Assembly: GCF_000832065.1 (NCBI RefSeq)
Contig: NZ_JXQM01000008.1
Location: forward strand, 124,001 to 188,000
Length of the DNA stretch: 64,000 bases
Reading direction: 5' to 3'
DNA from: Nitrosospira sp. NpAV
GTDB lineage: Bacteria > Pseudomonadota > Gammaproteobacteria > Burkholderiales > Nitrosomonadaceae
Both the position numbers and the translations under genes were made by a program. Position 1 is the stretch's first letter, and every line of letters starts with the position of its first letter. The notes below the pieces were generated by a model. The model had not been told where the DNA came from. It did not search any database and saw nothing but the letters and a program-made list of their open reading frames with translations. This document shows positions 11,372-33,476 of the stretch, piece after piece.

Positions 11372-11400
11372 TTCCAAATCCGGCAGTTGATCGCTCATGG
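11372..11400 (+). repeat. Dispersed intergenic repeat copy (CCAAATCCGG core)
   Basis: CCAAATCCGGCAG followed by TTGATCGCTCAT, the near-consensus of the dispersed repeat described in the findings. It lies in the 156-bp gap between argS and the SPOR gene. The following bases contain a second GCTCAT and a GATGAGC/GCTCAT pairing, so it could fold as a hairpin. Confidence 0.7.
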
Positions 11401-11516
11401 GCCGCTCATTTTTGTGATGAGCGTCATGACCCACCACGACGTTTTGCATCAATTGATCCTTACTTTCTTGTTGAGTTCGCCACCGGCCATCAGATCGACA
11501 AATATCGATATGCTTT

Positions 11517-13265
11517 CTACATTTTCTCGGGGGCGCTCACACCCAGCAGTTCCAGTCCGTTGACCAGCACCTGCCTTACTGCGGCAATCAGCCCCAGGCG
11601 GGCGAGCCGCAGTGGAGCTTCCGGCACAAGAAATCGGGTAGCATTATAGTAACTGTGGAATTCTCCGGCCAGTTCCCTTAAATAAAATGCGATCAGATGA
11701 GGGGAAAGTTCCTTCGCCGCCGCTTCCACCATTTCGGGATAATCAATCAACTTTTGCAGCAGAGATAATTCCGCGGGGCTGGTAAGCAGAATCATATCTA
11801 CGGCAACAAGCGTCTCCCACTCCCCGCCCCATTGCTCCAGCACGCTGCAAACTCTTGCATGCGCATACTGGATGTAATATACGGGATTATCGTTGCTTTG
11901 CGACTTGGCCAAATCCAGATCAAAGTCCAGATGCTGGTCGCTTTTGCGCAGCACGTAAAAAAATCTTGCCGCATCGTTGCCCACCTCCTGGCGTAATTCC
12001 CGCAACGTCACGAATTCCCCTGAACGGGTAGACATGGAAGCTTTTTGACCATTGCGGTAAAGTATCGCGAACTGCACCAGAGCGATTTCAAGTTTTGCCG
12101 GGTCAAGCGCCAATGCTTGCAAGGCACTTTTCACCCGCGGGATATACCCGTGATGATCGGCTCCCCACACATCGATTACGCGTTCGAAGCCACGCTCGAA
12201 TTTGTTGAGATGATAGGCAATGTCGGAAGCGAAGTAGGTGAACTGTCCGTTTTCCCGTTGCACAACGCGGTCTTTTTCGTCGCCGAAATGCGTTGAACGG
12301 AACCACTTGGCACCATCCTGCCGATACAGATAATTCTGTTGCTCGAGCAATTGCACCGCCTGCGCTACCGCCCCGCTATCAAATAACGATTGCTCGGAAA
12401 ACCAAGTGTCGAAAACAACTCCGAATTCCATCAAGTCATTGCGGCAGTCGCCCAATTGCTCGGTAAGAACAAAATTGTGGATATATGCATAATCCTGTCC
12501 CAGCAGCCCCTTGGCATTGGCGATTAGCTGGTCGAGCTGAGCCTCGGTATCTGAATCCGCTTCCGGAGAGATGTCCTCAAACAGCAAATCGGGTTGATGC
12601 AGATAGCGCCCCCCATGCGCCTTTTGAATCAGCCGCGCCATGTCACGCACGTACTCGCCCTGATAGGCATTGCTGGGAAAGCGCAGCAGGACCCCATGGA
12701 GTTCCAGATAACGCAGCCAGGTGGAAAGCGCCAAAATATCCATCTGCCGTCCCGCATCGTTGACATAGTATTCGCGTGAGACGGAAAACCCCGCCGCCGC
12801 CAGTACATTCGCCAAGCTTGCGCCAAACGCCGCACCGCGCCCGTGGCCTACATGCAGCGGGCCTGTCGGGTTGGCCGACACAAACTCCACCTGGATTTTC
12901 CTGCCCGCACCAATATTGCCATGACCAAATCTTCCGCCACTCTCCAGCACATAGCGCGGGAACTGCTGTTTGACAGAAGTCTTGAGAAACAGGTTGATAA
13001 ACCCCGCCCCCGCAATCTCGATTTTCTCCAGGTAAGGGGAAGCGGACAGCGCACTGATGAGTAATGCGGCAATATCACGCGGATTTTGACGCAACGGCTT
13101 GGCCAGTTGCATTGCAAGATTGCAGGAGTAATCACCATGGCTTGCTTGCCTGGAACGTGCAAACTCGATATCCAGATCCAAACCCAGCGGTGCGATTTCA
13201 CTCAAGGCCGGGCGCAGAAGTTCGATAAAGTGGGATCTGAAGTTGGGCGGGGCTGGCGGAAACAT
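11517..13265 (-). CDS. argS: Arginyl-tRNA synthetase
   Basis: 582 residues, a class I aminoacyl-tRNA synthetase charging tRNA-Arg. It has the N-terminal Add1 domain, the HIGH signature in the form HVGHGRG within ANPTGPLHVGHG (about residues 132-145), a degenerate KMSK loop (KASMSTRSG), as is usual for many ArgRS enzymes, and the C-terminal DALR anticodon-binding domain with YIQYAHAR at its start. Length is normal. The ATG at 13265 gives the family N-terminus; no strong ribosome site is visible. A TATAAT hexamer on the minus strand at 13306-13301 could be its -10 element, but no good -35 is seen. Confidence 0.96.
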   Translation of the reverse strand: MFPPAPPNFRSHFIELLRPALSEIAPLGLDLDIEFARSRQASHGDYSCNLAMQLAKPLRQNPRDIAALLISALSASPYLEKIEIAGAGFINLFLKTSVKQQFPRYVLESGGRFGHGNIGAGRKIQVEFVSANPTGPLHVGHGRGAAFGASLANVLAAAGFSVSREYYVNDAGRQMDILALSTWLRYLELHGVLLRFPSNAYQGEYVRDMARLIQKAHGGRYLHQPDLLFEDISPEADSDTEAQLDQLIANAKGLLGQDYAYIHNFVLTEQLGDCRNDLMEFGVVFDTWFSEQSLFDSGAVAQAVQLLEQQNYLYRQDGAKWFRSTHFGDEKDRVVQRENGQFTYFASDIAYHLNKFERGFERVIDVWGADHHGYIPRVKSALQALALDPAKLEIALVQFAILYRNGQKASMSTRSGEFVTLRELRQEVGNDAARFFYVLRKSDQHLDFDLDLAKSQSNDNPVYYIQYAHARVCSVLEQWGGEWETLVAVDMILLTSPAELSLLQKLIDYPEMVEAAAKELSPHLIAFYLRELAGEFHSYYNATRFLVPEAPLRLARLGLIAAVRQVLVNGLELLGVSAPEKM

Positions 13266-13472
13266 GGTTACGTCATAATGACAGGTTGTTTGAAGCCGTT
13301 ATTATAACGATGTTGCGGCAGATTACGCGCCAGTTTGATTTACGCGGCAATGGAAAAGAACCTATAGTCAGGAAAACGGCGTTGCCACCGCGCCGAAGGG
13401 TGGCGTCGCATGTGTCGGCATGCGGCTACCGAAGTCAATTCATCGAGTTGTTGCCAAGGCGTATCACTCTTC

Positions 13473-14513
13473 CTAAAAGACGATGGTCCAACCGGGTTGA
13501 TTCGCTTGTTGCTTGGTATAGGATACGCCATGCACTTTCAAACCGTTCTGGTTCAGCAGTGTGATGATCCCGCCCTTATTGGACAGCACAGTAGGCGGCT
13601 GCACGTCAACACGAAGCGTGGCGCCAGGTTCGAGTGCTCCGCTCAAGGGCATCTTCGCTTTCTGCTTGTCGGCCAGATGCCATCCGGCCAATGAAATGAG
13701 CCGATCACTGGGATTCATTATCTGGACCCACTCTTTCTCGGGAGATTCTTTCGAATTAACCAGCGCCGCGACAATACGCACCAGTCCATCGGGCAATGAT
13801 TCCGTCGGCTGCGGCACGATCGGATCGGGGTTTACCGGTTCGCCCCCCTCCTCTCCCGTTCTCAACGTGTGCCCTGTCACATCGTCAGTATGCCAACTTT
13901 GTGACTGAAACTTCAGGAAAATGGCTGTCCACTGTTGTTGAATGGGAAAATGAAAAAGGAGGCCGCCGTCCTGCCACACGCCATCATCCTGTACGAAGTT
14001 GCCCACATTGCCCTGATTCATGTGGATATCATGAATACCGTTACCGGGAACAAAGCCGAAGTACTTATCGGCTCTATTGCTCTCCGGTCCCCAGCGTTCG
14101 CCGAAGGCATAAACCAGCGCGTCCTCATCAGCCATGGCGCGCTGTACGATCTGATCAAGTTTCTCGTTCAGATCATTGTCGGGTCCCGGTAAATTGAAAG
14201 CGAGAGGGGTCATCATTCCAGGCTGGACCAGGTTGCCGCGGATCAGGTCGAGTGCTCCCGAGGTCGGGCTTGGCGCAAGCGGATTGAAGCCGCTCGGCAG
14301 GACAGAGACTGCGTCCGTGAGGGGATGGACAAAATGCGATTTGATATGATACATCAACTCCGACGGCGCCAATTGAGACTTCACATTGACCGCAATCCGG
14401 TAACTGGTGCCAATTTCATCCACAATATGGAGCTGATAATGTGGGGAGGATCCCGAACCCAAGCGGCGGGCAATGGCCCTCCCCTTCAAAACCCCATAGT
14501 TCTTTAGAGCCAT
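13473..14513 (-). CDS. DUF2278 (YukJ-like) protein with C-terminal lamin-tail domain
   Basis: 346 residues from the ATG at 14513, chosen because an AGGAGG ribosome site lies at the right distance. An ATG nine codons upstream would place that site inside the gene. The N-terminal about 220 residues match the DUF2278/YukJ pattern (opening ALKNYGVLKG, then AFGERWGPE and GIHDIHMNQGN). After a Pro-rich linker, the last about 110 residues look like a lamin-tail/LTD beta-sandwich (EWVQIMNPSD, LAGWHLADK). No signal peptide is visible, so it is probably cytoplasmic. Family function is unknown; links of LTD domains to nucleic acid or surface binding are only suggestive. It seems to be monocistronic. Confidence 0.8.
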   Translation of the reverse strand: MALKNYGVLKGRAIARRLGSGSSPHYQLHIVDEIGTSYRIAVNVKSQLAPSELMYHIKSHFVHPLTDAVSVLPSGFNPLAPSPTSGALDLIRGNLVQPGMMTPLAFNLPGPDNDLNEKLDQIVQRAMADEDALVYAFGERWGPESNRADKYFGFVPGNGIHDIHMNQGNVGNFVQDDGVWQDGGLLFHFPIQQQWTAIFLKFQSQSWHTDDVTGHTLRTGEEGGEPVNPDPIVPQPTESLPDGLVRIVAALVNSKESPEKEWVQIMNPSDRLISLAGWHLADKQKAKMPLSGALEPGATLRVDVQPPTVLSNKGGIITLLNQNGLKVHGVSYTKQQANQPGWTIVF

Positions 14514-14611
14514 GCTTCCTCCTAAAATAATGGTTTGCATGCGATGCCGGATGACCAGAATAAATAATCAGCCGCCTGCAACATCTTGTAGGAAAATCCC
14601 GTATCCGGACA

Positions 14612-14636
14612 ATATCCCAAATCCGGTGGCTAATGG
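14612..14636 (+). repeat. Dispersed intergenic repeat copy
   Basis: ATATCCCAAATCCGGTGGCT is a diverged copy of the window's dispersed repeat. It is preceded at 14597-14609 by ATCCCGTATCCGG, which looks like a partial tandem duplicate. It lies between the DUF2278 gene and the TIGR03790 gene. Confidence 0.6.
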
Positions 14637-14671
14637 CTTATCCGTCAATCCAAGCTCATGATTCGATCAGG

Positions 14672-15907
14672 TCACCATCGGACTCTAAGATAACCACCTT
14701 TTTCAGCAAAATTAAAGCGTATCAGATTCGCGCCGCGGTGCAAGGGAGAATGCCGGGTAATCAGCTTGAACGGTCCGGCGGCTGAGGGAGATCGCTCAAT
14801 TCGCAGCAGCCGTTCGCGCGGCGAGAAAATGCGCAATTCGAATTGTCCGGCGCGTACTTCCCGCAGGCTGGGTGAAAACGGCCGGGCCAGCGGTTCACCC
14901 ACGAATACGCCTTCTCCCGGCCACGCGACGCTCTTCCAGTAGGCTTCAATGGCGCTTGCGCCAAGGGCATAATGAAACATGACAATACCTGGAACAGGAA
15001 ATTTCTGCATATGATTACAGGGCTCCACTACGGTGCCGTAGCTTGCCGTGGCGCCAGCTTCCAGCCAGCGCAAACTGCTCATCTGACTCGAATCGGTAAG
15101 CTGGCCTCCGGTTGACGTCAAATGATCAGCCAATGCACCTGGCAGGAAATCCAATGTATGGAGCTGCGGCACATGCGCCAATCCTGTGAAATAAAACAGA
15201 ATATCGTGGCGGTCGGTGATTGCCTCGGTCTCGAGAATGTCAATAGGGAAAACGCCGGTCAGTTCTTTTGCGGTTCGCTCGAAATAATTTGCCCGCACGC
15301 TACGCGCTTTATCGGGCGTAATGATCAGATAAGCGCGCCCCTCCGGAAAGCTGTGGTCAGCAGCGACGCCCCGGTCGATCAACGCTTTGACCTGTTCAAA
15401 ACTGGTGCCAGCCAACATCATTGCCGGTCGCAATTTATGATCGGTGGCGGGATTAAGACTGGAAGAGTTAAAGTAGGGGCTGGGCGCGGTCGGACCGCAT
15501 TCGGACGAGCAATAGTCTTCATCGAAGCCGAAAGCCAGTGCGGAAGTCAGAGACATGCAGCCCACCCGGTAGGGATCTGCCCAAGCTACAGCATAGGCTT
15601 GAACATGAGTGGGCGCTGTCCGGTCGATCTCTGCCTTCAATTGCTGAAACTCATCCCTCGAAAGCGCTTTACGGCCGGGTTGGAAACGCAGATGGATCAT
15701 GTTGGCTGCCGGGATATGGCGTATCTTCTGGTAGTAATCTCCGATTTGTTTTGATAGGGGATCATCGTCATTAATGATGACAGCAAGATCATCCGGCGTC
15801 AGCCCCGTGCGTGGTAACTGGACCCGCTCCTGAGCATCGGCAAACGATGGCTGGAAAAATAGAACGATCAGCAGGCTGATCGAAAATTGGATTAAAAATT
15901 TCATCAT
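14672..15907 (-). CDS. TIGR03790-family secreted protein, unknown function
   Basis: 411 residues from the first of two adjacent ATG codons at 15907/15904. An upstream in-frame ATG at 15937 would put ten charged residues before the signal peptide (MMKFLIQFSISLLIVLFF, cleavage near SFADA). The mature part matches my memory of the TIGR03790 family: an opening on independent 'INDDDPLS' and 'YYQKIRHIPAANMIHL' phrases, the mid-protein YAVAWADPYRVGC and a Cys-containing DEDYCSSECG patch. A YFTG..HVP region and a GATASYGTVVEPCN motif suggest a hydrolase-like fold. No catalytic function is established for the family. No strong ribosome site is seen, so the exact start is uncertain. Confidence 0.75.
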   Translation of the reverse strand: MMKFLIQFSISLLIVLFFQPSFADAQERVQLPRTGLTPDDLAVIINDDDPLSKQIGDYYQKIRHIPAANMIHLRFQPGRKALSRDEFQQLKAEIDRTAPTHVQAYAVAWADPYRVGCMSLTSALAFGFDEDYCSSECGPTAPSPYFNSSSLNPATDHKLRPAMMLAGTSFEQVKALIDRGVAADHSFPEGRAYLIITPDKARSVRANYFERTAKELTGVFPIDILETEAITDRHDILFYFTGLAHVPQLHTLDFLPGALADHLTSTGGQLTDSSQMSSLRWLEAGATASYGTVVEPCNHMQKFPVPGIVMFHYALGASAIEAYWKSVAWPGEGVFVGEPLARPFSPSLREVRAGQFELRIFSPRERLLRIERSPSAAGPFKLITRHSPLHRGANLIRFNFAEKGGYLRVRW

Positions 15908-16083
15908 AGACAAGCGGCATGCGGCATGGCGCGGCATAATGACATCTGATCATTGTAGCCCGCCATCTGACATGCTACATCAGATTGGAAGCCTATCCAC
16001 AGAACCGATTCCGATGCTTGTAATCAAAAATTGAAGGATGTTTTTGTTCCTTATCGGATAAGCAAACTCCATCCTCATGCATG

Positions 16084-16110
16084 ATAATCCCAAATCCGGC
16101 GGTTGACTCC
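16084..16110 (+). repeat. Dispersed intergenic repeat copy
   Basis: AATCCCAAATCCGGCGGTTGACTCCC is a near-consensus copy of the dispersed repeat. It lies 64 bp upstream of the rhomboid gene, in its probable promoter or leader region. I see no inverted partner nearby. Confidence 0.65.
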
Positions 16111-16173
16111 CAGTCTCTTAGTTTAATGCCATGTCCCGCAGCAACCTTTTCAGGAAAATAAATCCACCGGCCC

Positions 16174-17259
16174 ATGCTGTCTCTCCATGATCTTCTTTAC
16201 CAGCGGACACCGCGGGTGCCCGTGACGAAATTGCTGGTAGGCATCAACCTGCTGGTTTTCGTGGCAATGCTCGCCGGCGGAGCGGGCCTGTGGCATTCGT
16301 CCAATAACGTGCAATTGGCCTGGGGAGCGAATTTTGGCCCGGCTACGCAGGATGGGGAATGGTGGCGCCTGGGTAGCGCCATGTTCCTCCATTTCGGCGC
16401 CGTCCATCTGACGCTGAATCTTTGGGCGCTTTGGGATGGGGGACAACTGGTTGAGCGCATGTATGGGCACACCCGTTTTGCGGCCATCTATTTCTCCAGC
16501 GGGCTGACGGGCAATCTGCTATCGCTTGTCGCGCACAAAGGATTAGCCGTTTCCGGCGGCGCCTCGGGCGCTATTTTTGGCCTGTATGGCGCTTTGCTGG
16601 TGTTTCTCTGGCGGGAGCGGCGCAATCTTGACCCACAGGAATTCCGCTGGTTTTTCTGGGGAGCGGCGGGTTTTGCGGTAGCCACCCTTATTCTCGGTTT
16701 TCTAATTACGGGTATCGACAATGCCGCTCACATAGGCGGTTTTTTAACCGGAGCTCTTGGAGGAATAGTGCTTGCGCGGCCTGTGAATGGAATAAAACGG
16801 GTAGCCCATCGCAGCCGCCTGCTTGCAGGAGGCGCTTTTACGTTGGCCGTTGCCATCCTGATCAGCCAGATTCCCGTACGGGCCTACCGATGGAGCGAAG
16901 AAGTGCTGACGCGCAAGGAGATTGGGGAATTTTTGCGTGATGATGCGGCGATCAGCCAGGCGTGGCAAAGCATACTTGATGAGGGCAGGCGTGGCGGCAT
17001 CTCATTCGAAGAGCTTGCGGGACGCATCGATACGGCGGTTGGAGATCGTTACGAAGAAAACTTCGAGCAGCTTTCCCACCTTCCGCCCAATCCTGCTCTG
17101 CCTTCCTCCGCGACAGTGGAAATGCTGCGCCACTATGCGGAGCGCCGCAGGGATGCTTCCCGTGCGTTGGCTGAAGGACTGCGCGCCCACAAGCCGGAAC
17201 AGATTCGCGATGCCCTCGAAATGGCAAATCAGGCGCGGCAACTGTCTCAGCCTGACTGA
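16174..17259 (+). CDS. Rhomboid-family intramembrane serine protease
   Basis: 361 residues with at least six hydrophobic helices. The catalytic dyad is present: Ser131 in GASGAIFG (GxSG) and His186 in NAAHIGG. The HLTLN motif (His78, Asn82) gives the oxyanion residues. It cleaves transmembrane helices of client proteins within the inner membrane. After the seventh helix (around residues 213-231) a soluble C-terminal extension of about 130 residues, rich in Arg, Glu and Ala, has no obvious domain. This exceeds the minimal rhomboid core. A dispersed repeat copy sits just upstream. Substrate unknown. Confidence 0.9.
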   Translation: MLSLHDLLYQRTPRVPVTKLLVGINLLVFVAMLAGGAGLWHSSNNVQLAWGANFGPATQDGEWWRLGSAMFLHFGAVHLTLNLWALWDGGQLVERMYGHTRFAAIYFSSGLTGNLLSLVAHKGLAVSGGASGAIFGLYGALLVFLWRERRNLDPQEFRWFFWGAAGFAVATLILGFLITGIDNAAHIGGFLTGALGGIVLARPVNGIKRVAHRSRLLAGGAFTLAVAILISQIPVRAYRWSEEVLTRKEIGEFLRDDAAISQAWQSILDEGRRGGISFEELAGRIDTAVGDRYEENFEQLSHLPPNPALPSSATVEMLRHYAERRRDASRALAEGLRAHKPEQIRDALEMANQARQLSQPD

Positions 17260-17399
17260 TTCAGACTGATGGAGCGGAAGCGGGTTATTGTCGCTTTTGC
17301 ATTTCAGTAGTTTATTTTCTTTTAAGGCAAGCGTCATTTACGATAATTTTAAGAAAAATTTTGACACACATCGAAAAATATTGCACTATGACGCGGCGT

Positions 17400-17443
17400 A
17401 CTAGTAATAGTAAATCGTGTCCGATAAGAGTACTAGATGTAGT
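17400..17443 (+). promoter_or_regulatory. Two putative NrdR boxes upstream of nrdA
   Basis: Two near-palindromes, ACTAGTAATAGT at 17400-17411 and ACTAGATGTAGT at 17432-17443, both fit ACTAnnnnTAGT, the centre of the known NrdR-box consensus. Their 32-bp spacing, about three helical turns, is what NrdR tandem sites usually show. They lie 77-120 bp before the nrdA start. A candidate -35 (TTGACA, 17371-17376) is just upstream, which suits repression of nrdAB by NrdR when dATP/ATP levels are high. The nrdR gene is not in the window. Confidence 0.7.
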
Positions 17444-17519
17444 GGTTTGTCAGCGCCACAGCATCCACTTCAGTCAATGGGAAAGCATACGTTTCCCGTA
17501 TCGATGAGGAGAATCCAAT

Positions 17520-20354
17520 ATGCAGCTTGTAACAGACAATACGACCCCCCCGGTAGCACCCGGGTACGATTTTTCTTCAACCCATTACACACCGGATTCC
17601 CGCTATTCCCAATACAAGATCATTCGCCGCAATGGCTCTGTCGTCGCATTCGAGCCGAACAAGATTTCCATTGCGATGACAAAGGCATTCATTGCCGTCA
17701 ATGGCGGTCAAGGCGTGGCTTCCGCCAGGGTCCGCGAAGTGGTGGCGCGGCTGACCGATGATGTGGTGAATGCGTTGATTCGCCGCCAGCCCACGGGTGG
17801 AACCTTTCATATCGAAGATATCCAGGATCAGGTAGAGCTGGCATTGATGCGTTCCGGTGAGCACGATGTGGCACGTTCTTATGTACTTTATCGCGAGGAT
17901 CGTGCGCGCAAGCGGGCAAAACAGAAGGAAATGGCGGTGGTGGAGATCCCGGCCAGCATTCTGAATGTGGTGGAGAATGGGCGCAAAATGCCGCTTGACA
18001 CAGCCCAGCTGCTGGCGCTGATCGAGTCTTCCTGCGCGGATTTGGGCGAGGTGGTGAACGCCAAACTGATACTTAAGGCCACATTGAAAGACCTGTACGA
18101 TGGAGTGCCGGTAGAAGAGGTAAGGAAATCGGTTGTACTGTCGGCGCGCGCACTCATTGAGAAAGAACCCGCCTACAGCTACGTCACCGCGCGCCTGTTG
18201 TTGCATACCATCCGTTTCGAGGTGCTGGGCGAAGAAGTCGTGCAGCAGGAAATGTCAGATCGCTACGTGGATTATTTTCCTGATTTCATTAAACGTGGTA
18301 TCGAAGCTGAGTTGCTGGATGAGCGTCTGGCGCAGTTTGATCTCCCGCGTTTGGCTAAAGCTCTGGATGCCGGCCGCGACCTGAAATTTGGTTATCTCGG
18401 TTTACAGACCTTGTATGACCGCTATTTCCTGCATGTAGAGGATCGGCGCATCGAATTGCCGCAGGCATTCTTCATGCGTGTGGCAATGGGGCTCGCGCTG
18501 AACGAAATTGACCGCGAGGGACGCGCCATAGAGTTCTATCACGTGCTGTCAAATTTCGATTTCATGAGTTCCACCCCGACTCTGTTTAATTCAGGCACTC
18601 GCCGCTCTCAGTTATCTTCGTGCTATCTCACCACGGTGGCGGATAATCTCGATGGCATTTACGAAGCCATCAAGGAAAATGCCTTGCTTGCCAAGTATGC
18701 CGGAGGCCTCGGTAATGATTGGACGCCAGTGCGGGCGATGGGTTCGCGCATCAAAGGCACCAATGGCAAATCACAAGGCGTGGTTCCGTTTCTCAAGGTG
18801 GTGTCCGACACCGCGGTCGCGGTGAATCAAGGCGGCAAGCGCAAGGGCGCGGTATGCTCTTATCTGGAATCATGGCATCTGGATATCGAGGAATTTCTGG
18901 AATTGCGCAAGAATACCGGCGATGACCGTCGCCGTACCCATGATATGAATACCGCTACCTGGGTTCCCGACCTGTTTATGAAACGGGTAATGGAGGGAGG
19001 TGAATGGACACTTTTCTCACCCTCCGACGTGCCTGATCTGCATGAAAAGTTTGGCAAACAGTTTGAGCAGGCCTACCTTGCCTACGAGGAAAAGGTCGCG
19101 CGCGGCGAGCTGAGCCTGCACAAAAAAATTCCCGCGCAACAATTATGGCGCAAAATGCTCAGCATGCTGTTTGAAACGGGGCACCCATGGATTACCTTCA
19201 AGGACCCATGCAATATCCGCTCACCGCAAAACCACACCGGCGTAGTGCATAGCTCCAATCTCTGTACGGAAATAACCCTGAACACCAATGATCATGAAAT
19301 CGCGGTATGCAATCTGGGTTCGGTCAACCTGGCGGCCCACATCCATGATGGAGAGCTTGACGCTGACAAGCTCAAGCGCACTGTCAGCACCGCCATGCGC
19401 ATGCTGGACAACGTAATCGACATCAACTTCTACGCCGTCGCCAAGGCGCGCAACTCAAACCTCAGGCACCGCCCGGTGGGACTGGGTATCATGGGCTTCC
19501 AGGATTGCCTGCATAAGCTGCGCGTCCCCTACGCCTCACAAGAGGCGGTAGAGTTTGCCGATCATGCGATGGAAGCGGTCGCATACCATGCCTATTGGGC
19601 TTCCACCGAGTTGGCCGAAGAGCGAGGGCGTTATGCTTCTTATCAGGGGAGTCTGTGGGATCGCGGCATCCTGCCTCAGGATACCCTTGATCTGTTGCGT
19701 GAGGAACGGGGGGGTTATGTCGACGTGGACATGTCGGCCACGATGGAATGGAATGCATTGCGCGAACGCATAAAAAAACATGGCATGCGTAATTCCAATT
19801 GTCTTGCGATTGCACCGACCGCCACTATTTCAAATATCATCGGCGTATCCGCCAGCATCGAGCCGACTTTTCAAAACCTTTATGTCAAATCCAACTTATC
19901 GGGAGAGTTCACCATGGCTGGCGAACACCTGGTAAACGACTTGAAAAAACTCGGGCTCTGGGACGAAGTCATGATTTCCGATCTCAAGTATTTTGATGGC
20001 GCCTTAAGCAAGATAGACCGGGTACCGGCCGATATTCGCAGACTTTACGCCACCGCCTTCGAGATTGATCCCCAGTGGTTAATCGAAGCAGCGGCACGGC
20101 GGCAAAAATGGATTGATCAGGCACAATCACTCAACATTTATATGGCGGGCGTTTCCGGTAAAAAACTGGATGAAACCTATAAACTGGCCTGGCTGCGGGG
20201 TCTGAAAACCACCTATTATTTGCGCTCTCTGGGAGCAACTTCAGCGGAAAAATCCACAGTCGAAGCAGGCGCTCTGAACGCGGTACCCGCGGAAGGAAAC
20301 ATGACTGCGATGAGTTGCGCGATTGATAATCCCGAGTGCGAGTCATGTCAATAA
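17520..20354 (+). CDS. nrdA: Ribonucleoside-diphosphate reductase, class Ia alpha subunit
   Basis: 944 residues, the large catalytic subunit that reduces NDPs to dNDPs. It begins with an ATP-cone allosteric domain (roughly residues 35-135, [17 protein letters not shown] onward). The NrdA barrel carries [10 protein letters not shown] (active-site Cys), the NLGSVNL and NLCTEI phrases holding the catalytic Asn/Cys/Glu, and PTATISNI. The C-terminal redox tail ends [12 protein letters not shown], with the Cys pair that thioredoxin or glutaredoxin reduces. ATG at 17520 follows GAGGAGAATCCAAT. nrdB follows after 34 bp. The gene is preceded by probable NrdR boxes. Confidence 0.97.
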
Positions 20355-22518: not shown

Positions 22519-22728
22519 TATCCTAAATCCGGTGATTGGAAGGGTGAACTGTACGGTTTTTGAAACGCAGGGCAAGGCGCAATAACACGGCCATGTATCA
22601 CAAAAGCAGTATAATCCGCTCCCCGTAGCGGCTCACCCCGACGATGAGAACCCAATAGCACAGAAATTCTCTACGAATCATAGTGCTAGACTGACAAATG
22701 AGCGATTAACTACCGGATTTAGGATTAT
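22519..22728. repeat. Paired dispersed repeats forming a ~210-bp MITE-like unit
   Basis: A forward copy (TATCCTAAATCCGGTGATTG, from 22519) and an inverted copy (AATGAGCGATTAACTACCGG followed by ATTTAGGA, ending at 22726) face each other. Read inwards, both begin TCCTAAATCCGGT. Between them is about 150 bp with no ORF, including a stretch rich in CCGTAGCGGC. The outer bases are TA-rich on both sides. No transposase is associated. This, with the copy at 22891, fills most of the 562-bp gap 22453-23014. Confidence 0.65.
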
Positions 22729-22890: not shown

Positions 22891-22918
22891 CATCCTGAAT
22901 CCGGCAGTGGATTCGCGA
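22891..22918 (+). repeat. Dispersed intergenic repeat copy
   Basis: CATCCTGAATCCGGCAGTGG then ATTCGCGATT matches the dispersed repeat, with CCTGAATCC instead of CCTAAATCC. It is the third copy inside the gap before the small gene at 23015, about 100 bp from its start codon. Confidence 0.6.
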
Positions 22919-23488: not shown

Positions 23489-23612
23489 AAACCTAAATCC
23501 GGCAATCGACCGCTCATTTCCCGGTTTAGTGTCACGATCAAGAAATTTTTTTTGCGTTACCAGCCTTCCACCTTTAGGGTAAAAATTTGCCGCTATCGGA
23601 TTTAGGCTAAAG
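23489..23612. repeat. Paired dispersed repeats forming a ~120-bp MITE-like unit
   Basis: Left arm AACCTAAATCCGGCAATCGA then CCGCTCATTT at 23490-23519 (near-consensus). Right arm GCCGCTATCGGATTTAGGCT (23589-23608) is the inverted counterpart. The interior includes a T8 run and CCTTCCACCTTTAGGGT, which resembles the interior of the element at 33351-33476. It lies in the 406-bp gap 23294-23699, about 90 bp before fumC, and could influence its expression. Nothing else is recognisable in the gap. Confidence 0.7.
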
Positions 23613-26701: not shown

Positions 26702-26705
26702 GCGG

Positions 26706-26805: not shown

Positions 26806-27534
26806 ATGGATATCGCAAATCCACAATTTTGGGTCGCGGTATTGCAAATCATCGCCATTGATATTGTACTAGGCGGAGACAATGCAGTTGTGATTGCGCT
26901 TGCATGCAGGCGGCTACCGGAGAAGCAACGCAATCTGGGCATTTTCTGGGGGGTGTTCGGCGCTATCGGCCTGCGCGTTGTTTTGATTTTTTTTGCGCTT
27001 TCGCTGCTTGCGGTTCCGTTTTTGAAAATAGTAGCCGCATTGCTGCTGTTGTGGATCGGTATCAAGCTGCTTCAGCCCGAACCGGATAATAGCGGTCACC
27101 AGATTGACGCCAGCACCACGCTGGTGGGTGCCATAAAGACAATCATTATCGCCGATGCCGTAATGAGCCTCGATAACGTTATTGCCATTGCAGGCGCCGC
27201 TAAAGATAGTATCGGCCTGGTCATTTTCGGTTTGGTGATAAGCGTGCCCATCATTGTCTGGGGCAGCAAACTGGTGATGAAACTTATGGATCGTTTTCCC
27301 ATCGTCATTGTCATGGGTGCTGGCTTGCTTGGCTGGATCGCGGGAGACATGAGCGTTACCGACGCTGTCACCAGGGAATGGGTGAATGTTAACGCGGCCT
27401 TTTTACATTGGCTGGTTCCTGCCGGCGGAGTATTGCTGGTAGTCGTCATCGGCAAATGGCTTGCGGCGAGAACACAGGCAAAAATGGCGCCTATCGTTGA
27501 TCTGGCGGATGACATAAACAAACCGTTACCTTGA
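26806..27534 (+). CDS. TerC-family integral membrane protein (YjbE-like)
   Basis: 242 residues, about seven transmembrane helices. The two family hallmark motifs are GGDNAVVIALA (about residues 25-35) and SLDNVIAIAGA (about 122-132), whose Asp-Asn pairs are thought to bind metal in the membrane. TerC proteins are implicated in tellurite resistance and, better supported, in manganese export during metalation of exported proteins. The YjbE branch, with this length and C-terminal amphipathic tail, is the best fit. Start ATG at 26806 after a weak site. A dispersed repeat copy overlaps its last codons and 3' flank, and a stress protein gene follows on the same strand. Confidence 0.88.
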   Translation: MDIANPQFWVAVLQIIAIDIVLGGDNAVVIALACRRLPEKQRNLGIFWGVFGAIGLRVVLIFFALSLLAVPFLKIVAALLLLWIGIKLLQPEPDNSGHQIDASTTLVGAIKTIIIADAVMSLDNVIAIAGAAKDSIGLVIFGLVISVPIIVWGSKLVMKLMDRFPIVIVMGAGLLGWIAGDMSVTDAVTREWVNVNAAFLHWLVPAGGVLLVVVIGKWLAARTQAKMAPIVDLADDINKPLP

Positions 27535-27547
27535 ATCCGGTGGCTGC
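27530..27547 (+). repeat. Dispersed intergenic repeat copy at the 3' end of terC
   Basis: CTTGAATCCGGTGGCTGC begins in the last terC codons, so that the stop codon TGA is part of the repeat. It is a diverged copy of the dispersed repeat and has no visible inverted partner. Confidence 0.45.
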
Positions 27548-27655
27548 GGCGAACCGAGAAACAAACAACAAATGCATTAAAAATGAGCGCCGTCACCTGC
27601 CGGGTTCAGAATTACAGTCGCCGTGAATATAACTGCCGTATTAAGGGGGGATACA

Positions 27656-28081
27656 ATGTTGAAATTCCTGCTGCCCGTGGATGGCTCCCATGCCTCCAAT
27701 CAAGCGGTTGCCAGATTCATTAAACGGCTCGACTGGTATAAGGAAGCGCCGGAGATTCATTTGCTGAACGTACAATTTCCACAGCACGGGAATGTAACTT
27801 TGTTTATCGACAAAGAAAGCATCAACCTGTATCACCAGGAAGAGGGCTTGAAAGGGTTGCAAACCGCACGGGGCTTGCTGGACCGGGCGGGAATTGACTA
27901 CCAGTTTCACATCATGGTAGGCAGTCCGGTGGAAATAATTACACGCTATGCAAAAGAAATGGAGTTCGACCAGATAGTTATCGGACCGCGCGGGCTCGGC
28001 GTGGTGAAAGGTTTGCTGCTAGGTTCCGTAGCCAGCAAGGTGATGCAGCTTTCGACCGTGCCCATACTACTGATCAAATAA
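27656..28081 (+). CDS. Universal stress protein (UspA family)
   Basis: 141 residues from the ATG at 27656 with an AAGGGGGG site; an upstream in-frame ATG at 27623 would add eleven residues that do not fit the family. It is a single Usp domain opening KFLLPVDGSHASN and closing with the nucleotide-binding signature G-x2-G-x9-G-S (GPRGLGVVKGLLLGSVAS), so it is of the ATP-binding type. It is a cytosolic dimer with a role in stress survival in the family; its signal is unknown. It lies 121 bp after terC, possibly in the same unit. Confidence 0.9.
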   Translation: MLKFLLPVDGSHASNQAVARFIKRLDWYKEAPEIHLLNVQFPQHGNVTLFIDKESINLYHQEEGLKGLQTARGLLDRAGIDYQFHIMVGSPVEIITRYAKEMEFDQIVIGPRGLGVVKGLLLGSVASKVMQLSTVPILLIK

Positions 28082-28195
28082 ACCCGGGAACCGACCGCCA
28101 GCATTCGTACAGGCTCGCACAGCAGCCCAATGGATGATCAGATTAATGGCGCGCATTAAAGAATATGGATATCAATCAAAAGGAGTTTTATCAAG

Positions 28196-28684
28196 ATGGA
28201 GCAGGATCAAAAAGGTTTAACTTTGATCGAAACAATGATGACGTTCGCTATTATTGGCATCCTGGCGACGATAGCTATTCCGCCAGCATACCAGCTTTAT
28301 GAGGACTCCGTGGCGCGGGACCAGGTGATGGAAGCCTTCGGTCTCCTGCAAAGCGTGGAATCACCTGTTGTCGCGTTTTATTCCGATAAGGGGAGATGGC
28401 CGACAAAACTGGAATTTGATAGCCTGGTGACGGCCCGGACAGGGCGATATGTCGCCAGTCTCACGCCTTTGCCACTTGCCTCCGGTTTTCAGGTTACGGC
28501 GACATTCAAGATTAATGGGGTTAGCGCAAGCCTTTTGAACGAAGGAGTTGGCAGAACCCTGGTAGTCGCGACAAAAGATGGCGCGCAATGGATTTGCAAC
28601 GATAATACCGATCCCGCGACCGGGGTTCCCGGTCTTGTTGCGGGCAACGTACTCTCTCAACATCGTCCTCCGGTGTGCAAGTAG
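28196..28684 (+). CDS. Type IV prepilin-like protein (pseudopilin or minor pilin)
   Basis: 162 residues. A short leader MEQDQKG is followed by the canonical prepilin peptidase site and N-methylated helix: cleavage after Gly7, then LTLIE with Glu at +5, and a hydrophobic helix through IIGILATIAIPPAY. The C-terminal part has two Cys (WICNDN and PPVCK) that could form the disulfide loop of a pilin. Ribosome site AAAAGGAG. No other pilus genes are nearby, so it depends on a PilD/PilB machinery encoded elsewhere. Whether it is a major pilin, minor pilin or type II pseudopilin cannot be decided. Confidence 0.85.
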   Translation: MEQDQKGLTLIETMMTFAIIGILATIAIPPAYQLYEDSVARDQVMEAFGLLQSVESPVVAFYSDKGRWPTKLEFDSLVTARTGRYVASLTPLPLASGFQVTATFKINGVSASLLNEGVGRTLVVATKDGAQWICNDNTDPATGVPGLVAGNVLSQHRPPVCK

Positions 28685-29055
28685 CGTGATATTACCAATA
28701 ATGGGACCCGAGATTGATGACAAATAATTGAGTTGATAACAGGGGGTAATCCAAATGTTTCTAGGTGATAGTATTTTTGGCGCGCTGCGCATGGTTGGCT
28801 GAGATCCATTTATTGGACAATTGACCGTAATCCCTTAAAGTTTATAATCCCCTATAACCGTTTGCTCCTATCAGGCTGAACCGTGTCGTGTCGCGCCGCG
28901 AATCGATCCATCAGAATTTAACCGCTACCCCACCCGCGGGTTTTCAGAAGAAGTAGCAAAAAAGAGAGAGAAAAAATAAATCAGCTAATCAGGATCACAG
29001 GGCACGGTGCCCATCCATAAGTCTGTAACACAATTGGAAACCCCGAAAGGAATAC
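28685..29055 (+). other. 371-bp intergenic region with a 15-codon ORF behind a good ribosome site
   Basis: No normal gene is present. A tiny frame at 28755-28802 (ATG to TGA, MFLGDSIFGALRMVG) is preceded by AGGGGG eight bases upstream, a better site than many real genes here. It may be a leader peptide or a chance hit. A GGGCAC/GTGCCC hairpin lies at 28997-29009, just before the gene at 29056. The segment around 28960 is purine-rich (AAAAAAGAGAGAG). Confidence 0.3.
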
Positions 29056-29505
29056 ATGAACGAATACACCGATCAAATATCTGGATACTTCAATCAAGTG
29101 CCTATGTGGCCCTTGGTTTTACTCGCTGTGGCAATCGTTATCTCGGGAATATACGAACTGTTCCACCGCAAGCAACGTGCTCATGCCATTGATGATTTCC
29201 GTTCCGCTATTCTCTCCACGCTCTCCGGTCTATATCCTGAACCTACCCATTGGCCTAAAAGTATCGATACTTATCTTTGTGCCCGATTGCCCGTCATGCA
29301 GGAAATCATCGACGATTTCAAGCCTAACGTACGCCAGGAGAGCCTCCCTGCCTACAACAGGGATTGGGATAACTATTATCAGTTCTGCCGCGCAGAGGTG
29401 ACCGACGACAAGTGCACCGCGGCAGACCTGAATCCCGGCGCGGAGCCAGACCCCAAAAAACAATTCCACACACTTGTCTCGAATCTTTTGCGTCATGCAA
29501 GCTGA
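29056..29505 (+). CDS. Membrane-anchored protein of unknown function
   Basis: 149 residues. One transmembrane helix near the N-terminus (WPLVLLAVAIVISGIYELF, about residues 18-36) is followed by a soluble domain rich in Tyr, Asp and Pro with four Cys (DTYLCARLP, YQFCRAE, DDKCTAA), ending in a helix LVSNLLRHAS. The basic residues just after the helix (HRKQR) suggest the domain is cytoplasmic. Ribosome site GAAAGGAATAC. The sequence does not match a family I can name; the spacing of Cys does not look like haem or zinc binding. An orphan between a prepilin gene and the His-rich repeat protein. Confidence 0.65.
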   Translation: MNEYTDQISGYFNQVPMWPLVLLAVAIVISGIYELFHRKQRAHAIDDFRSAILSTLSGLYPEPTHWPKSIDTYLCARLPVMQEIIDDFKPNVRQESLPAYNRDWDNYYQFCRAEVTDDKCTAADLNPGAEPDPKKQFHTLVSNLLRHAS

Positions 29506-29519
29506 ATTCTTGATTACAT

Positions 29520-29703
29520 TTTGACCGGGAATTAATTTAACTATAATATGAACTGACCCTTTGAAACCCCACCTATCGATCAAGTCTCTTGCGCCCGCAA
29601 TTTCAAAAGGGAAATCCGGGTGGCAGTTCCGCCAATAGATCTGTTTTGGGGGCGATAAGTCTCGATACCTGTCAACCGTTGCGCCAAGCTACGCTGGTAT
29701 AAT
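29520..29703 (+). promoter_or_regulatory. Two candidate promoters before the repeat-protein gene
   Basis: The first is TTGACC (29521-29526) with TATAAT (29542-29547), a near-consensus sigma-70 pair, though the spacer is only 15 nt. The second is an extended -10, TGG plus TATAAT at 29698-29703, inside a 15-mer shared exactly with the terC upstream region. Between them, 29602-29626 has GGAAATCCGGGTGGCAGTTCC, possibly a decayed copy of the dispersed repeat. Confidence 0.4.
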
Positions 29704-29783
29704 AAAAAGAAGCAGGGAAATACAGGAGTGGAGAATCAGCTTTATTTTACCGACTAATATCGTACTGAACTTTGGAGAGAAAA

Positions 29784-30056
29784 ATGAACAAACTGTTACC
29801 GATGCTTGCCGCAATAGCCTTCGCCACTACCTTCAGTTTTAACGCCGTCGCCGAAAAACATGATGGTCATGGCGATCATGGTTCGCATTCATCCAAGGCC
29901 CACGGCGACAAAGGGCACGCCGAGAAGGATGAAGCCCATGCCAAGAAGGCGCGGGAACACGCCGAAAAAGATGAGGCCCATGCCAAGAAGGCGCGGGAGC
30001 ACGCCGATAAAGATGAGGCCCATGCCAAAAAGGCACGAGAAGACGAGAAAAAGTAA
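29784..30056 (+). CDS. Secreted Lys/His/Glu-rich protein with 14-residue tandem repeats
   Basis: 90 residues from the ATG at 29784 (site TTTGGAGAGA); a TTG four codons upstream is rejected. A signal peptide (MNKLLPMLAAIAFATTFSFNAVA) is followed by a His/Gly segment (HDGHGDHGSH) and three tandem copies of a 14-residue unit, HAEKDEAHAKKARE, in DNA a 42-bp repeat. The charge pattern predicts a long single helix with salt bridges; the His residues could bind divalent metal. Copy number may vary between strains by recombination. An intrinsic terminator follows directly. Function unknown; small periplasmic metal-buffering proteins have similar composition, but this is only a suggestion. Confidence 0.75.
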   Translation: MNKLLPMLAAIAFATTFSFNAVAEKHDGHGDHGSHSSKAHGDKGHAEKDEAHAKKAREHAEKDEAHAKKAREHADKDEAHAKKAREDEKK

Positions 30057-30080
30057 TCCCGGCTCATTTCCCATTCACGT

Positions 30081-30109
30081 AAAGGCAGGCTTATCCCTGC
30101 CTTTTTTTA
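30081..30109 (+). terminator. Rho-independent terminator
   Basis: AAAGGCAGG and CCTGCCTTTTTTT form a GGCAGG/CCTGCC stem with a short loop (CTTATC region) followed by seven T residues. It lies 25 bp after the stop of the repeat-protein gene and would end that transcript. Confidence 0.85.
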
Positions 30110-30157
30110 TCGCGCTATTTTGAGGTGGTTTAAGACCTGCATCGGCTGTAAGGAATG

Positions 30158-30619
30158 TCAATACTCTTGCTTGGCAAATGCCTTGTAGACGCCAGCCATC
30201 GAAATGCCAAACATGATATGCGTAACGACTGTAATCCAGTCGCGGACCTCCGAGAACCAGGGAAAAATGATCGTTACGCCATACATATTTATCCCATAAA
30301 GGGTCAGTCCGTAGATAGCGCCTGCAAGCAACGACGGCAACATCCGCAGACGCGCGATCAAACCAGCCAGAACGAGGCTGTATGCGACAGAAATCACAAA
30401 ATGAATCAACGTCGCGACCATCATCACGGTCCAGTCAAAAGTGGCAGGGGGCGGCAAGACCTCCCGCCCCATTATGATTGCCGCAGTCAGGCGCGCATCC
30501 CTATATAACATCCAGGGCACGGCATCCAGAAAAATCCACCAGAGAAAAAGCTGTATCCCCGTGGCTAATATTCCCGCGACAATACCGGCGACAACCGCGG
30601 CGGCCCAGTTCACACCCAT
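30158..30619 (-). CDS. Conserved integral membrane protein, unknown function
   Basis: 153 residues with four predicted helices (about 7-28, 63-85, 93-115 and 128-146). It opens GVNWAAAVVAGIVAGILATG and contains FDWTVMMVATLIHFVISVAYS. The loop after the first helix has LDAVPWMLYRDARL, with two Trp. No transport, quinone or metal motif can be recognised. I recall similar proteins in betaproteobacteria carrying unreliable transporter names, so no function is given. It is isolated and convergent with the repeat-protein gene, whose terminator separates them. Confidence 0.75.
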   Translation of the reverse strand: MGVNWAAAVVAGIVAGILATGIQLFLWWIFLDAVPWMLYRDARLTAAIIMGREVLPPPATFDWTVMMVATLIHFVISVAYSLVLAGLIARLRMLPSLLAGAIYGLTLYGINMYGVTIIFPWFSEVRDWITVVTHIMFGISMAGVYKAFAKQEY

Positions 30620-30808
30620 AGGTCACCAAACAAGAAAATTGGTCAAGTCCTGCATAACTACCGCTGTGGCAGCGTGAATTCCAGAGTTCCTGCAAAACGT
30701 ACTACTGGAAACCGATTCGTTCTACAATGATAAGCATAGCATTGAGACCCATGCGCTCAAATCAGGATTCCAGAGATACGCAATAACCACTATGTGGCCA
30801 GCCCATTT

Positions 30809-31369
30809 ATGCAAAGCGTCGATTTGACCAACCATTTTCTGATCGCCATGCCCGCTATGGCGGACCCTTTCTTTTCCAAGACGCTCACATACATCTGTGA
30901 GCACAATGAACAGGGTGCGTTGGGTTTGGTAGTCAACCGCCCCATTGATCTCACGCTGAAAGATCTCTTCGATCAACTGGGTATTTCTTCTGATGATGAG
31001 GCCGCCGCGGGCCTGCAAGTAATGTTTGGCGGACCTGTACAACTGGATCGGGGCTTCGTGCTGCATCAACCGGTAGGCGACTGGCAATCCACCATGACCG
31101 TAAATCAAGAAGTTGGACTTACCACATCACTTGATATTTTACGGGCCATTGCCAGTGGAAACAGTCCCAAACAAATACTGGTTGCCCTCGGCTACTCAGG
31201 ATGGGCGCCCGGTCAGATAGAGCATGAATTGTCTCAGAATGCCTGGTTGACAGTACCCGCATCGCCCACCATCATATTCGAGCTTCCGTCCGAAGAGCGC
31301 CTGACCGCGGCGATGCACTCGCTGGGAATAGATTTCTCAAGCCTGTCGGACGAAGTGGGGCATTCCTGA
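30809..31369 (+). CDS. yqgE: YqgE/AlgH family protein
   Basis: 186 residues from the ATG at 30809, which places the family start [12 protein letters not shown] eight residues in. A GTG five codons upstream is possible, and neither has a good ribosome site. Typical phrases are [52 protein letters not shown] and NAWLTVPA. The biochemical role of this family is not established, although it was once thought to regulate alginate genes. It starts the yqgE-ruvX-pyrR-pyrB-pyrC' cluster, the same order as in Pseudomonas. Confidence 0.93.
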
Positions 31370-31373
31370 GAGA

Positions 31374-31402
31374 ACCTAAATGAGCGGCCGGCTGCCGAAT
31401 GA
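31374..31402 (-). repeat. Inverted copy of the dispersed repeat at the ruvX start
   Basis: AAATGAGCGGCCGGCTGCCG then AATGAG reads, on the minus strand, as CTCATTCGGCAGCCGGCCGC then TCATTT, a diverged repeat copy. It fills the yqgE-ruvX gap and contains the annotated ruvX ATG, so that gene's start may have been altered by the repeat. Confidence 0.45.
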
Positions 31403-31911
31403 GTTTAATATCTATGAGTGGAACCGCAACCATGCAAATGCAGACAACACAACACTTGTCACCGGATATCGGAAGCAGTCATCGTTCCATAGGCGCGATT
31501 CTGGCTTTTGATTTTGGTAAAAAGCGCATCGGCATAGCGGTGGGTGATCTGGAGGTGGGTTTGGCGCATCCGCTTGCCACGGTTAGCGACGAAAATACGG
31601 TGCGGCGTTTCGATAGTATCGCCAATCTCATTGCCGAATGGCAACCAGTCCTGCTGGTGGTAGGACTGCCCGCTTATGCCGATGGCACGGAACATGAATT
31701 AAGCCGGTTGAGCCGACGTTTCGCGCGGCGGCTCGAAGGCCGATTTGGCATTAAGACTGTGCTGGTGGATGAGCGTTATACTTCGGTTAGCGCCAGCGTC
31801 ATATTGCGGGAAGCGGATGTCAAAAAAAAGAAGCGGAAACCGGTACTTGATCAAGTAGCGGCACAATTGATATTGCAATCCTATTTCGATGGACAAGATG
31901 CGGCTACCTGA
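31399..31911 (+). CDS. ruvX: Putative Holliday junction resolvase RuvX/YqgF
   Basis: Up to 170 residues. The RNase H-like fold begins at [16 protein letters not shown] (catalytic Asp in AFDFG) and includes [11 protein letters not shown] and [10 protein letters not shown] (second acidic pair). Family knowledge: it acts in 16S rRNA 5' maturation and/or junction resolution. About 30 residues precede the fold, which is long for the family. Alternative ATGs at 31414 and 31432 (the latter with GGA nine bases upstream) may be the true start, because the first ATG lies inside a repeat copy. It overlaps pyrR by 14 bp. Confidence 0.9.
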
Positions 31912-32407
31912 TGCGGAACAATTGCTGGCCGGTCTGGCCGACGTGATGCGGCCTGACGTTACCGCGAACACCGCGCTGGTGGGAATCTATACGGGAGGCG
32001 TATGGCTGGCGGAACGGCTGCATCAGGGTCTGGGACTCGCTCTCCCCCTGGGTACGCTGGATGTTTCGTTCTATCGCGATGACTTTGGTCAAATCGGCCT
32101 GCATCCCCAGGTTAAGCCTTCGGATATCCCGTTCGAAGTGGAAGGCAGTCATATCATCCTGATAGATGATGTGCTCTATACCGGACGCACCATTCGCGCC
32201 GCCATCAACGAATTGTTCGACTATGGGCGGCCAGCGAGCGTCCGCCTCGCGGCACTGATAGATCGGGGTGGCAGAGAGCTGCCTGTGGCCGCCGAATACG
32301 TTGGCGCGACGCTCGTTCTACCATCAGATAAAATGCTGGCGCTGGAAAAAGACATCGACGGAAAATTGGGTTTGAGCCTGTATAACAAAAACTCTCCGGG
32401 ACAATGA
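31898..32407 (+). CDS. pyrR: Bifunctional pyr regulator / uracil phosphoribosyltransferase PyrR
   Basis: 169 residues from the ATG at 31898 ([10 protein letters not shown], the usual betaproteobacterial N-terminus; GGACAAG upstream). A start at 31889 has no ribosome site. The PRPP-binding loop is [15 protein letters not shown], the type I phosphoribosyltransferase signature. In Gram-positives PyrR binds pyr mRNA and causes attenuation. In pseudomonads it has a different regulatory role, and either is possible here. It overlaps ruvX upstream and pyrB downstream (ATGA), so the three are tightly coupled. Confidence 0.94.
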
Positions 32408-33351
32408 ACAATCCGCAACTGAACAAGAACGGAGAATTGCAACACCTTCTTACCACCGAGGGACTCCCCGCCTCCATTCTGCTTCACATACTGAATACGG
32501 CCGAATCCTTTGTCGGAGTTACCGAGCGAGACATCAAAAAAGTACCCCTGCTACGTGGAAAATCCATATTCAATTTATTCTTCGAGCCCAGTACCCGTAC
32601 CCGCACCACCTTCGAAATCGCGGCAAAACGTCTTTCAGCCGATGTGGTCAATCTGAATATCGCGGCCTCCTCGCAAACCAAAGGCGAGACGCTGCTGGAC
32701 ACGGTCGATAACCTCGCCGCCATGCATGCCGACATGTTTGTGGTGCGGCATTCACAAAGCGGTGCGGCACACTTGATAGCACGCCACGTTCGGCCCGAAA
32801 TTCACGTTATCAATGCCGGGGATGGCCGGCATGCACACCCCACTCAGGGATTGCTCGATATGTTTACCATCCGCCACTATAAAAGTAACTTCCATGATCT
32901 GCGCGTGGCCATCGTTGGCGATATCCTGCACTCGCGGGTGGCACGCTCCCAGATTCACGCGCTGACCACACTCGGTGTGCCCGAAGTACGCGTCATTGCG
33001 CCTAAAACCCTGTTGCCCGCCAAAGTGGAGCGGCTAGGCGTCCATGTTTATCACGAAATGGCGCAAGGGTTGAAGGATGTGGATGTGTTGTTGATGCTGC
33101 GCCTGCAGAATGAACGCATGCTCAGTGCGCGCCTTCCCAGCACGGAAGAATACTTCAAATACTATGGACTTACGCCGGAAAAACTGTCTCTGGCGAAGCG
33201 CGATGCCATTGTCCTGCATCCGGGCCCGATGAATCGCGGCGTGGAAATTGATTCCGCGGTAGCCGACGGCGGACAGTCGATGATTCTGCCGCAAGTCACG
33301 TTCGGAATCGCGGTCCGGATGGCGGTGATGTCGATTCTGGCGGGTAACTAA
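32404..33351 (+). CDS. pyrB: Aspartate carbamoyltransferase, catalytic subunit
   Basis: 315 residues. It condenses carbamoyl phosphate with aspartate, the first committed pyrimidine step. The carbamoyl-phosphate site is [13 protein letters not shown] (about residues 60-72), with the 80s loop SSQTKGETL and the HPTQGLLD and LHPGPMNRG motifs. The N-terminal about 25 residues before the fold resemble the extension of class A ATCases, which assemble with an inactive dihydroorotase-like subunit; that partner is encoded just downstream. It starts inside the pyrR stop. The stop codon TAA is also the first bases of a MITE-like unit. Confidence 0.96.
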
Positions 33352-33476
33352 ACCTGAATTTCGGCAGGCGATTGTTCATTTATTAAATGGATATATGACT
33401 CATAAGGATATATTTTGCTGTTCAAAACCTCATCTTTGGGTGAGCCCGCTACCGTTCAACTGCCGGATTTAGGTTA
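33351..33476. repeat. 126-bp MITE-like unit of paired dispersed repeats inside the pyr operon
   Basis: Left arm AACCTGAATTTCGGCAGGCG then ATTGTTCATTT (33351-33381). Right arm reads inverted AACCTAAATCCGGCAGTTGA then ACGGTAGCGGGCTCA (33476 back to 33442). The interior has TTTTGCTGTTCAAAACCTCA followed by TCTTTGGGT, which parallels the interior of the unit at 23489-23612. It sits between the pyrB stop and the pyrC' start eight bases later, so it must be transcribed with the operon and could form a long RNA hairpin. Confidence 0.75.

What the first reader, a model, noticed from the sequence alone, without database searches (positions are those of the whole stretch)
11372..33476. A family of short dispersed intergenic repeats, some paired as MITE-like units
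The core AACCTAAATCCGGCAGTTGA followed by CCGCTCATTT, or close variants, recurs at 11372, 14612, 16084, 22519, 22700 (inverted), 22891, 23489, 23591 (inverted), 27530, 31374 (inverted), 33351 and 33442 (inverted), with a possible decayed copy near 29605. All copies lie between genes or just at gene ends, none in the dcw half. Three times a forward and an inverted copy face each other with outer ends AACCTAAATCC-like, which is the arrangement of a MITE or palindromic repeat, but no transposase is in the window. I know of no named family with this core.
Basis: partly seen in the sequence, partly recalled or inferred. Interest (0 to 1): 0.8.

Follow-up and report, generated by a model that had tools for sequence, protein, structure and literature searches.

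The report
Miniature transposons with IS1380-type ends
The scattered repeats are the two ends of tiny transposons without genes of their own; their ends and target site resemble those of a group of full-sized jumping genes (IS1380 family) that turned up in related bacteria but not in this genome.

Summary
The 20-mer is the end of a non-autonomous transposon of about 81-388 bp; neighbouring forward and inverted copies are the two ends of one element. The window holds five good elements (11373-11487, 22522-22723, 23492-23606, 27530-27610, 33353-33473), one partial (16089-16160) and one likely remnant (31375-31403). 14612 and 22891 are unproven; 29605 is not a copy. A profile finds 121 matches in the own genome and 0 to 150 (scoring cap) in genus relatives. 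Of 100 ends, 82 are flanked by NTNAN (background 5.3%), and paired ends show 5-bp duplications. Orthologous empty sites prove insertion. IS1380-family elements of other Burkholderiales, such as a 1,639-bp one in UKL13-2, have similar ends (16 and 15 of 17 bases) and the same NTNAN duplication, so an IS1380-type transposase is the likely mover; none with such ends was found intact in the own genome or genus. Copies come in nested ~116, ~236 and ~376 bp forms, the longer ones with a large palindrome; relatives can carry one insertion with different amounts of interior, so elements probably shrink in place. New family of a known kind.

The parts
11373..11487 (+). MITE copy between an ftsN-like gene and argS; left end and interior kept, right end lost
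   Evidence: nhmmer 56 bits, R1 59.8 bits; flank ATTAT (NTNAN); filled also in G012, G021, G004, empty in G018
16089..16160 (+). partial MITE copy upstream of a rhomboid-like gene
   Evidence: R1 20 bits, E 5e-5; flank ATAAT; absent at this point in G021 and G012, while G012 has a separate insertion roughly 70 bp away
22522..22723 (-). 236-class MITE with the tip of its palindrome missing (202 bp); flanks TTTAT / ATTAT
   Evidence: nhmmer 100.6 bits; flanks (L211); empty in G021 and G012
23492..23606 (+). short-form MITE (115 bp) upstream of fumC; flanks TTAAA / CTAAA
   Evidence: same site holds a 236-bp form in G012 and a short form in G021; empty in G018 and G004
27530..27610 (-). trimmed MITE (81 bp); flanks GTTAC / ATTAC; its first bases supply the stop codon of the YjbE-family gene 26806-27534
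   Evidence: G012 has about 149 bp here; G018 and G004 are empty, with the stop TAG
31375..31403 (-). probable heavily trimmed remnant, overlapping the listed start of the ruvX ORF (31399)
   Evidence: similar sequence in G012 and G021, not in G018 or G004; not found by R1
33353..33473 (+). short-form MITE (121 bp) between pyrB (ends 33351) and pyrC (starts 33484); flanks CTAAA / TTAAA, the left one holding the pyrB stop codon
   Evidence: filled in G000, G012, G021, empty in the other 19 of 22 genomes read at this locus
22894..22911 (+). end-like sequence without partner or NTNAN flank; unproven
   Evidence: 16 of 18; no R1 match
14616..14633 (+). end-like sequence, 13 of 18, near chance level; unproven

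Best explanation
A family of MITEs. The 17-18 bp ends CCTAAATCCGGCAGTTG(A) are transposase-binding terminal repeats. An IS1380-type DDE transposase acting in trans cuts and inserts the element at NTNAN sites and duplicates the 5 bp. Longer forms carry a nested imperfect palindrome. After insertion, copies lose interior sequence in place, presumably by slippage or hairpin-dependent deletion. Shown: ends, target motif, duplications, insertion against empty sites, size classes, different interiors at the same site, and IS1380-family elements with similar ends and the same target in other Burkholderiales. Inferred: mobilisation in trans by such a transposase, the direction of change (loss rather than gain) and the mechanism of shortening.
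For: Copy number against control. NTNAN at 82 of 100 distinct ends in the own loci fetched against 5.3% of positions. Identical 5-bp flanks in 17 of 51 MITE pairs and at least 4/5 in 38 (shuffled control for identical flanks: mean 2.5, maximum 8), T at position 2 and A at position 4 in 17 of 17. Of 59 IS loci examined, 49 had both ends at least 11/17 like this one, with identical duplications in 31 (shuffled control mean 1.9, maximum 7), T and A in 31 of 31. UKL13-2 IS: 1,639 bp, near-identical copies, ends 16 and 15 of 17 like the MITE end. Transposases match PF13701 and NF033539 IS1380. Empty and filled sites. Fold and covariation of the 236 form.
Against: No intact IS with these ends was found in the own genome or the genus. 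MITE and IS resemble each other only in the 17-18 bp end: four MITE motifs are not above reversed control in the sampled IS loci, so the MITE is not a plain deletion product of any of them. NCBIfam IS1380 scores of the two transposases (151.9, 153.4) lie below its cut-off of 180. 18 of 100 ends lack NTNAN; 34 of 51 pairs and 18 of the 49 IS loci lack an identical duplication. A canonical IS1380 copy of the genus with quite different ends also sits in a site that fits NTNAN (TTAAT), so the target motif alone does not single out one subgroup. Transposition was not observed.
Confidence: 0.85

Rival explanations
1. REP/BIME-like palindromes spread by a RAYT (TnpA-REP, HUH) transposase.
For: Mostly intergenic, many copies, hairpins.
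Against: Terminal inverted repeats with 5-bp duplications at a fixed motif point to a DDE enzyme; HUH single-strand transposition leaves no such duplication (recalled knowledge). RAYT genes were not searched for.
Confidence: 0.03
2. MITEs moved by another DDE transposase that has similar ends and target motif by descent or convergence.
For: No intact IS1380 with these ends found in the genus; interior unlike the sampled IS; open frames with weak PF13701 matches exist in G021 (five copies) and G018 whose own ends were not worked out.
Against: 49 of 59 IS1380-type loci have both ends at least 11/17 like the MITE end, 31 of them with an identical NTNAN duplication. A canonical IS1380 copy in the genus has other ends, CCCAGATTTTCCATTAG.
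Confidence: 0.1
3. A conserved structured RNA or regulatory element carried in mobile-looking units; the nested palindrome is the selected part.
For: Compensatory changes at 14 of 33 pairs, reached by 0 of 500 shuffles; GTGAGTNCGCTAC-like block and palindrome plan persist in elements from other families (L031, L033).
Against: No Rfam match at gathering scores; insertions come and go between close species, and the palindrome differs or is missing at the same sites. The structure tested was predicted from the same alignment, and covariation in the outer stem also follows if both ends must fit one transposase.
Confidence: 0.1

Closest known systems
IS1380 family (subgroup with the UKL13-2 element, mostly Betaproteobacteria)
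   Same: Ends like CCTAAATCCGGCAGTTG (UKL13-2: 16 and 15 of 17; 49 of 59 loci at least 11/17 at both ends) and 5-bp NTNAN duplication
   Different: About 1.6-1.75 kb where both ends were found, with a transposase gene; no similarity found inside the ends
Correia elements (CREE/NEMIS) of Neisseria (recalled; one passage each in PMC4133298 and PMC9330008)
   Same: Short multi-copy MITEs without transposase
   Different: Most often a TA duplication (passage); other ends and transposase (recalled)
MITEPye1 of Paracoccus yeei (passages of PMC11578231)
   Same: MITE with terminal repeats, direct repeats and long stem-loop, tied to an IS family by its ends
   Different: IS1182-type ends, 1-3 copies per chromosome

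Membership tests
MITE | Short, no transposase gene, terminal inverted repeats | tested here: met
   81-388 bp, ends of 17-18 bp
MITE | Target site duplication | tested here: met
   17 of 51 pairs identical, 38 at least 4/5; shuffled control maximum 8 identical
MITE | Multiple copies and insertion polymorphism | tested here: met
   (between species, not strains)
MITE | Mobilisation in trans by an autonomous element | not testable with these tools
   Only inferred from similar ends and target
IS1380-mobilised | Ends and duplication like those of an IS1380-family element | tested here: met
   49 of 59 IS loci have both ends at least 11/17 like the MITE end, 31 with identical NTNAN duplication; the transposases score below the NCBIfam cut-off but above Pfam's
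IS1380-derived (deletion product) | Interior taken from such an IS | tested here: inconclusive
   Four MITE motifs not above reversed control in the IS loci held, but only 79 of 430 relatives were fetched
REP/BIME | No target duplication; RAYT partner | tested here: not met
   Duplications present; RAYT not searched

The most novel reading that the evidence does not exclude
The nested palindrome is not passenger DNA. Its plan (about 236 bp, GTGAGTNCGCTAC-like block, long palindrome) is kept in elements from different families although the letters change, so it may act in cis, for example by folding the two ends together on single-stranded DNA to help an IS1380-type transposase, and its loss in place would switch a copy off.
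Probability: 0.15. Interest if true: 0.65.

Novelty: new member of a known kind. Interest (0 to 1): 0.45.

Why it matters
It gives an orphan repeat family a likely mover, a target rule (NTNAN, which can contain the stop codons TAA and TGA) and insertions that can be dated among close species, so that MITE birth, shortening and loss become measurable site by site. The searches made here showed no MITE family tied to IS1380 in print; IS1380 members such as ISEcp1 and ISPme1 are known for moving neighbouring genes (passages of PMC9330008).

Tried and rejected
Rfam: no match at gathering scores. Plasmid and phage collections: no match to a 236-bp copy (plasmids) or a 376-bp copy (plasmids and phages). 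PF13701 in the own genome: 0; in 41 genomes, 10 with a match, mostly fragments or weak. MITE interior motifs in the IS loci held: not above control. Viral contigs: 9 stretches with the end, 2 with a related transposase; the 6 stretches with the inner left-end pattern showed no full end within 3 mismatches.

Preference for stop codons: against random positions, 18 of 100 ends lie near a gene stop versus 2.4%. Against non-coding NTNAN sites it is 5 of 82 ends versus 126 of 2057 sites counted for either strand, so there is no clear preference beyond avoiding genes.

AMO family search to identify the host: 0, but its control rang nowhere, so inconclusive. I therefore do not name the organism; only the order is shared with UKL13-2. 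Searching the papers for Nitrosospira rested on a guess.

Literature searches. For PMC11578231, PMC4133298 and PMC9330008 I saw passages only; for all others the search listing only.

Dropped rows: of the 79 IS loci, 20 were left out (14 further UKL13-2 copies, 3 further Dechloromonas agitata copies, 3 truncated or partial loci). One search used the duplication when choosing ends; one search did not. The 51 MITE pairs (both ends within 4 mismatches, 60-600 bp apart; some may be false pairs) include 9 from outside the genus set, one of them (L183) a deletion product of the UKL13-2 IS. In one search some elements appear twice because loci overlap.

Full report
What is there. The 18-mer CCTAAATCCGGCAGTTGA occurs 6 times in the window with up to 3 mismatches (0.05 expected) and 111 times in the 3.45-Mb own genome (61 forward, 50 reverse; reversed control 0). 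Facing pairs recur at fixed spans. Extracting them showed one element type with nested size classes near 116, 236 and 376 bp. The left end is CCTAAATCCGGCAGTTGACCGCTCATTT, followed by a variable stretch and the block GTGAGTTCGCTAC. In the 236 form an imperfect palindrome of about 120 nt follows that block; in the 376 form about 140 nt more sit in its tip. A 236-nt consensus folds at -94.7 kcal/mol, z -7.5. In an alignment of 22 copies, 14 of 33 pairs show changes on both sides, reached by 0 of 500 shuffles. The structure was predicted from the same alignment, and covariation in the outer stem may reflect transposase binding rather than folding.

Window inventory. Profiles find 11373-11487, 16089-16160, 22522-22723 (minus), 23492-23606 and 33353-33473 (boundaries refined by eye). 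Comparison with relatives adds 27530-27610 and, less surely, a remnant at 31375-31403, and removes 29605. 14616 and 22894 remain unproven.

Target site. Without using duplications for the choice, 82 of 100 distinct ends in the own loci fetched have T at -4 and A at -2, against 5.3% of positions. In 51 paired elements the flanking 5-mers are identical in 17 and match at 4 or more positions in 38; shuffled pairing gives 2.5 identical on average, 8 at most.

Insertion is real. At 33353 the element lies between pyrB and pyrC. Of 22 genomes read at this locus it is present in 3 (own, G012, G021) and absent in 19. In G018, for example, the two genes are joined by GGT AAT TGA AT ATG: the empty target TTGAA holds the pyrB stop codon, as the left flank CTAAA does here (frame from the ORF end). 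At 22522 the own genome is filled while G021 and G012 are empty; more distant genomes were too different there to judge. At 11373 four of the five genomes compared are filled and G018 is empty. At 16089 only the own genome is filled; G012 has a separate insertion roughly 70 bp away, and G021 has neither. At 27530 three are filled and two (G018, G004) empty; in the empty ones the YjbE-family gene ends in TAG, in the filled ones the element's first bases give TGA.

Different lengths at one site. 23492 is 115 bp here and 236 bp in G012; 27530 is 81 bp here and about 149 bp in G012; at 33353 the three species differ in the junction after GCTAC. Among 10 distinct short-form junctions in the own loci, 6 share AACTRCC-like starts and 4 differ, so both a short subfamily and repeated independent loss are possible. 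That the change was loss rather than gain is inferred.

Gene context. By a crude ORF call, 59 elements of the own loci lie between co-directional genes (33), divergent (10), convergent (7) or overlap an ORF of at least 100 aa (9).

Distribution. Profile R1 finds matches in 18 of 23 genus genomes, the own included: own 121, G012 150, G021 132, G005 107, G006 97, G002 97, G004 76, G010 50, ten others 20 or fewer, five with none. At most 150 candidates per genome were scored, so 150 is a ceiling, and an element can match on both strands, so these numbers are approximate. In the order, 23 of 300 genomes, the own included, have a 17-mer match with at most 1 mismatch; the reversed control matches once in each of 6 genomes, so some single matches are chance. 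Elements of the same plan occur in other families (L031, L033, L152).

The likely mover. A related IS with ends of this type and duplication ATTAG lies on a viral contig (L168). Their transposases (47% identical to each other) match PF13701 above its cut-off and NCBIfam IS1380 below its cut-off. A scan of the species genomes found 430 relatives; 79 loci were fetched and 59 examined: 49 have both ends at least 11/17 like the MITE end, 31 of these with identical duplications, always NTNAN. A canonical IS1380 copy in the genus (L059, G016) has other ends but flanks TTAAT, which also fit NTNAN. In the own genome no PF13701 match or relative of the UKL13-2 enzyme was found. In the genus there are fragments, among them one in G003 with stops and an end-like CCTAAATAAAGCAG, and open frames with weak PF13701 matches in G021 and G018, around which I saw no pair of such ends.

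Judgement. The elements meet the MITE criteria that could be tested. Their ends and target point to an IS1380-type mover, but their interior does not resemble any IS sampled, so 'IS1380-mobilised' is better supported than 'IS1380-derived'. The own genome may have lost its transposase, never have had one, or carry it in an unassembled gap (315 contigs).

Noticed in passing
window 27525-27615: A MITE inserted at a stop codon: empty relatives read CCG TTA TAG (G004) and CTG TTA TAG (G018), while the filled copies end the gene with TGA from the element's own end.
   Followed up: partly
window 33348-33483: An element of 121 bp sits at the pyrB stop codon, between pyrB and pyrC, which lie close together in 19 relatives; an effect on joint transcription is possible.
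   Followed up: no
G092 = UKL13-2, L177-L188: High-copy, nearly identical IS1380-type element, and a 473-bp deletion product of it (L183) with both ends and duplication TTGAT: a MITE-like product in the making.
   Followed up: partly
L172 (IMG/VR contig), 869-1104: A 236-bp member of the same MITE family on a contig listed as viral, a possible route between genomes.
   Followed up: no
window 29849-30052: In-frame tandem repeats of 42 nt in a small charged protein gene with a signal-peptide-like start.
   Followed up: no
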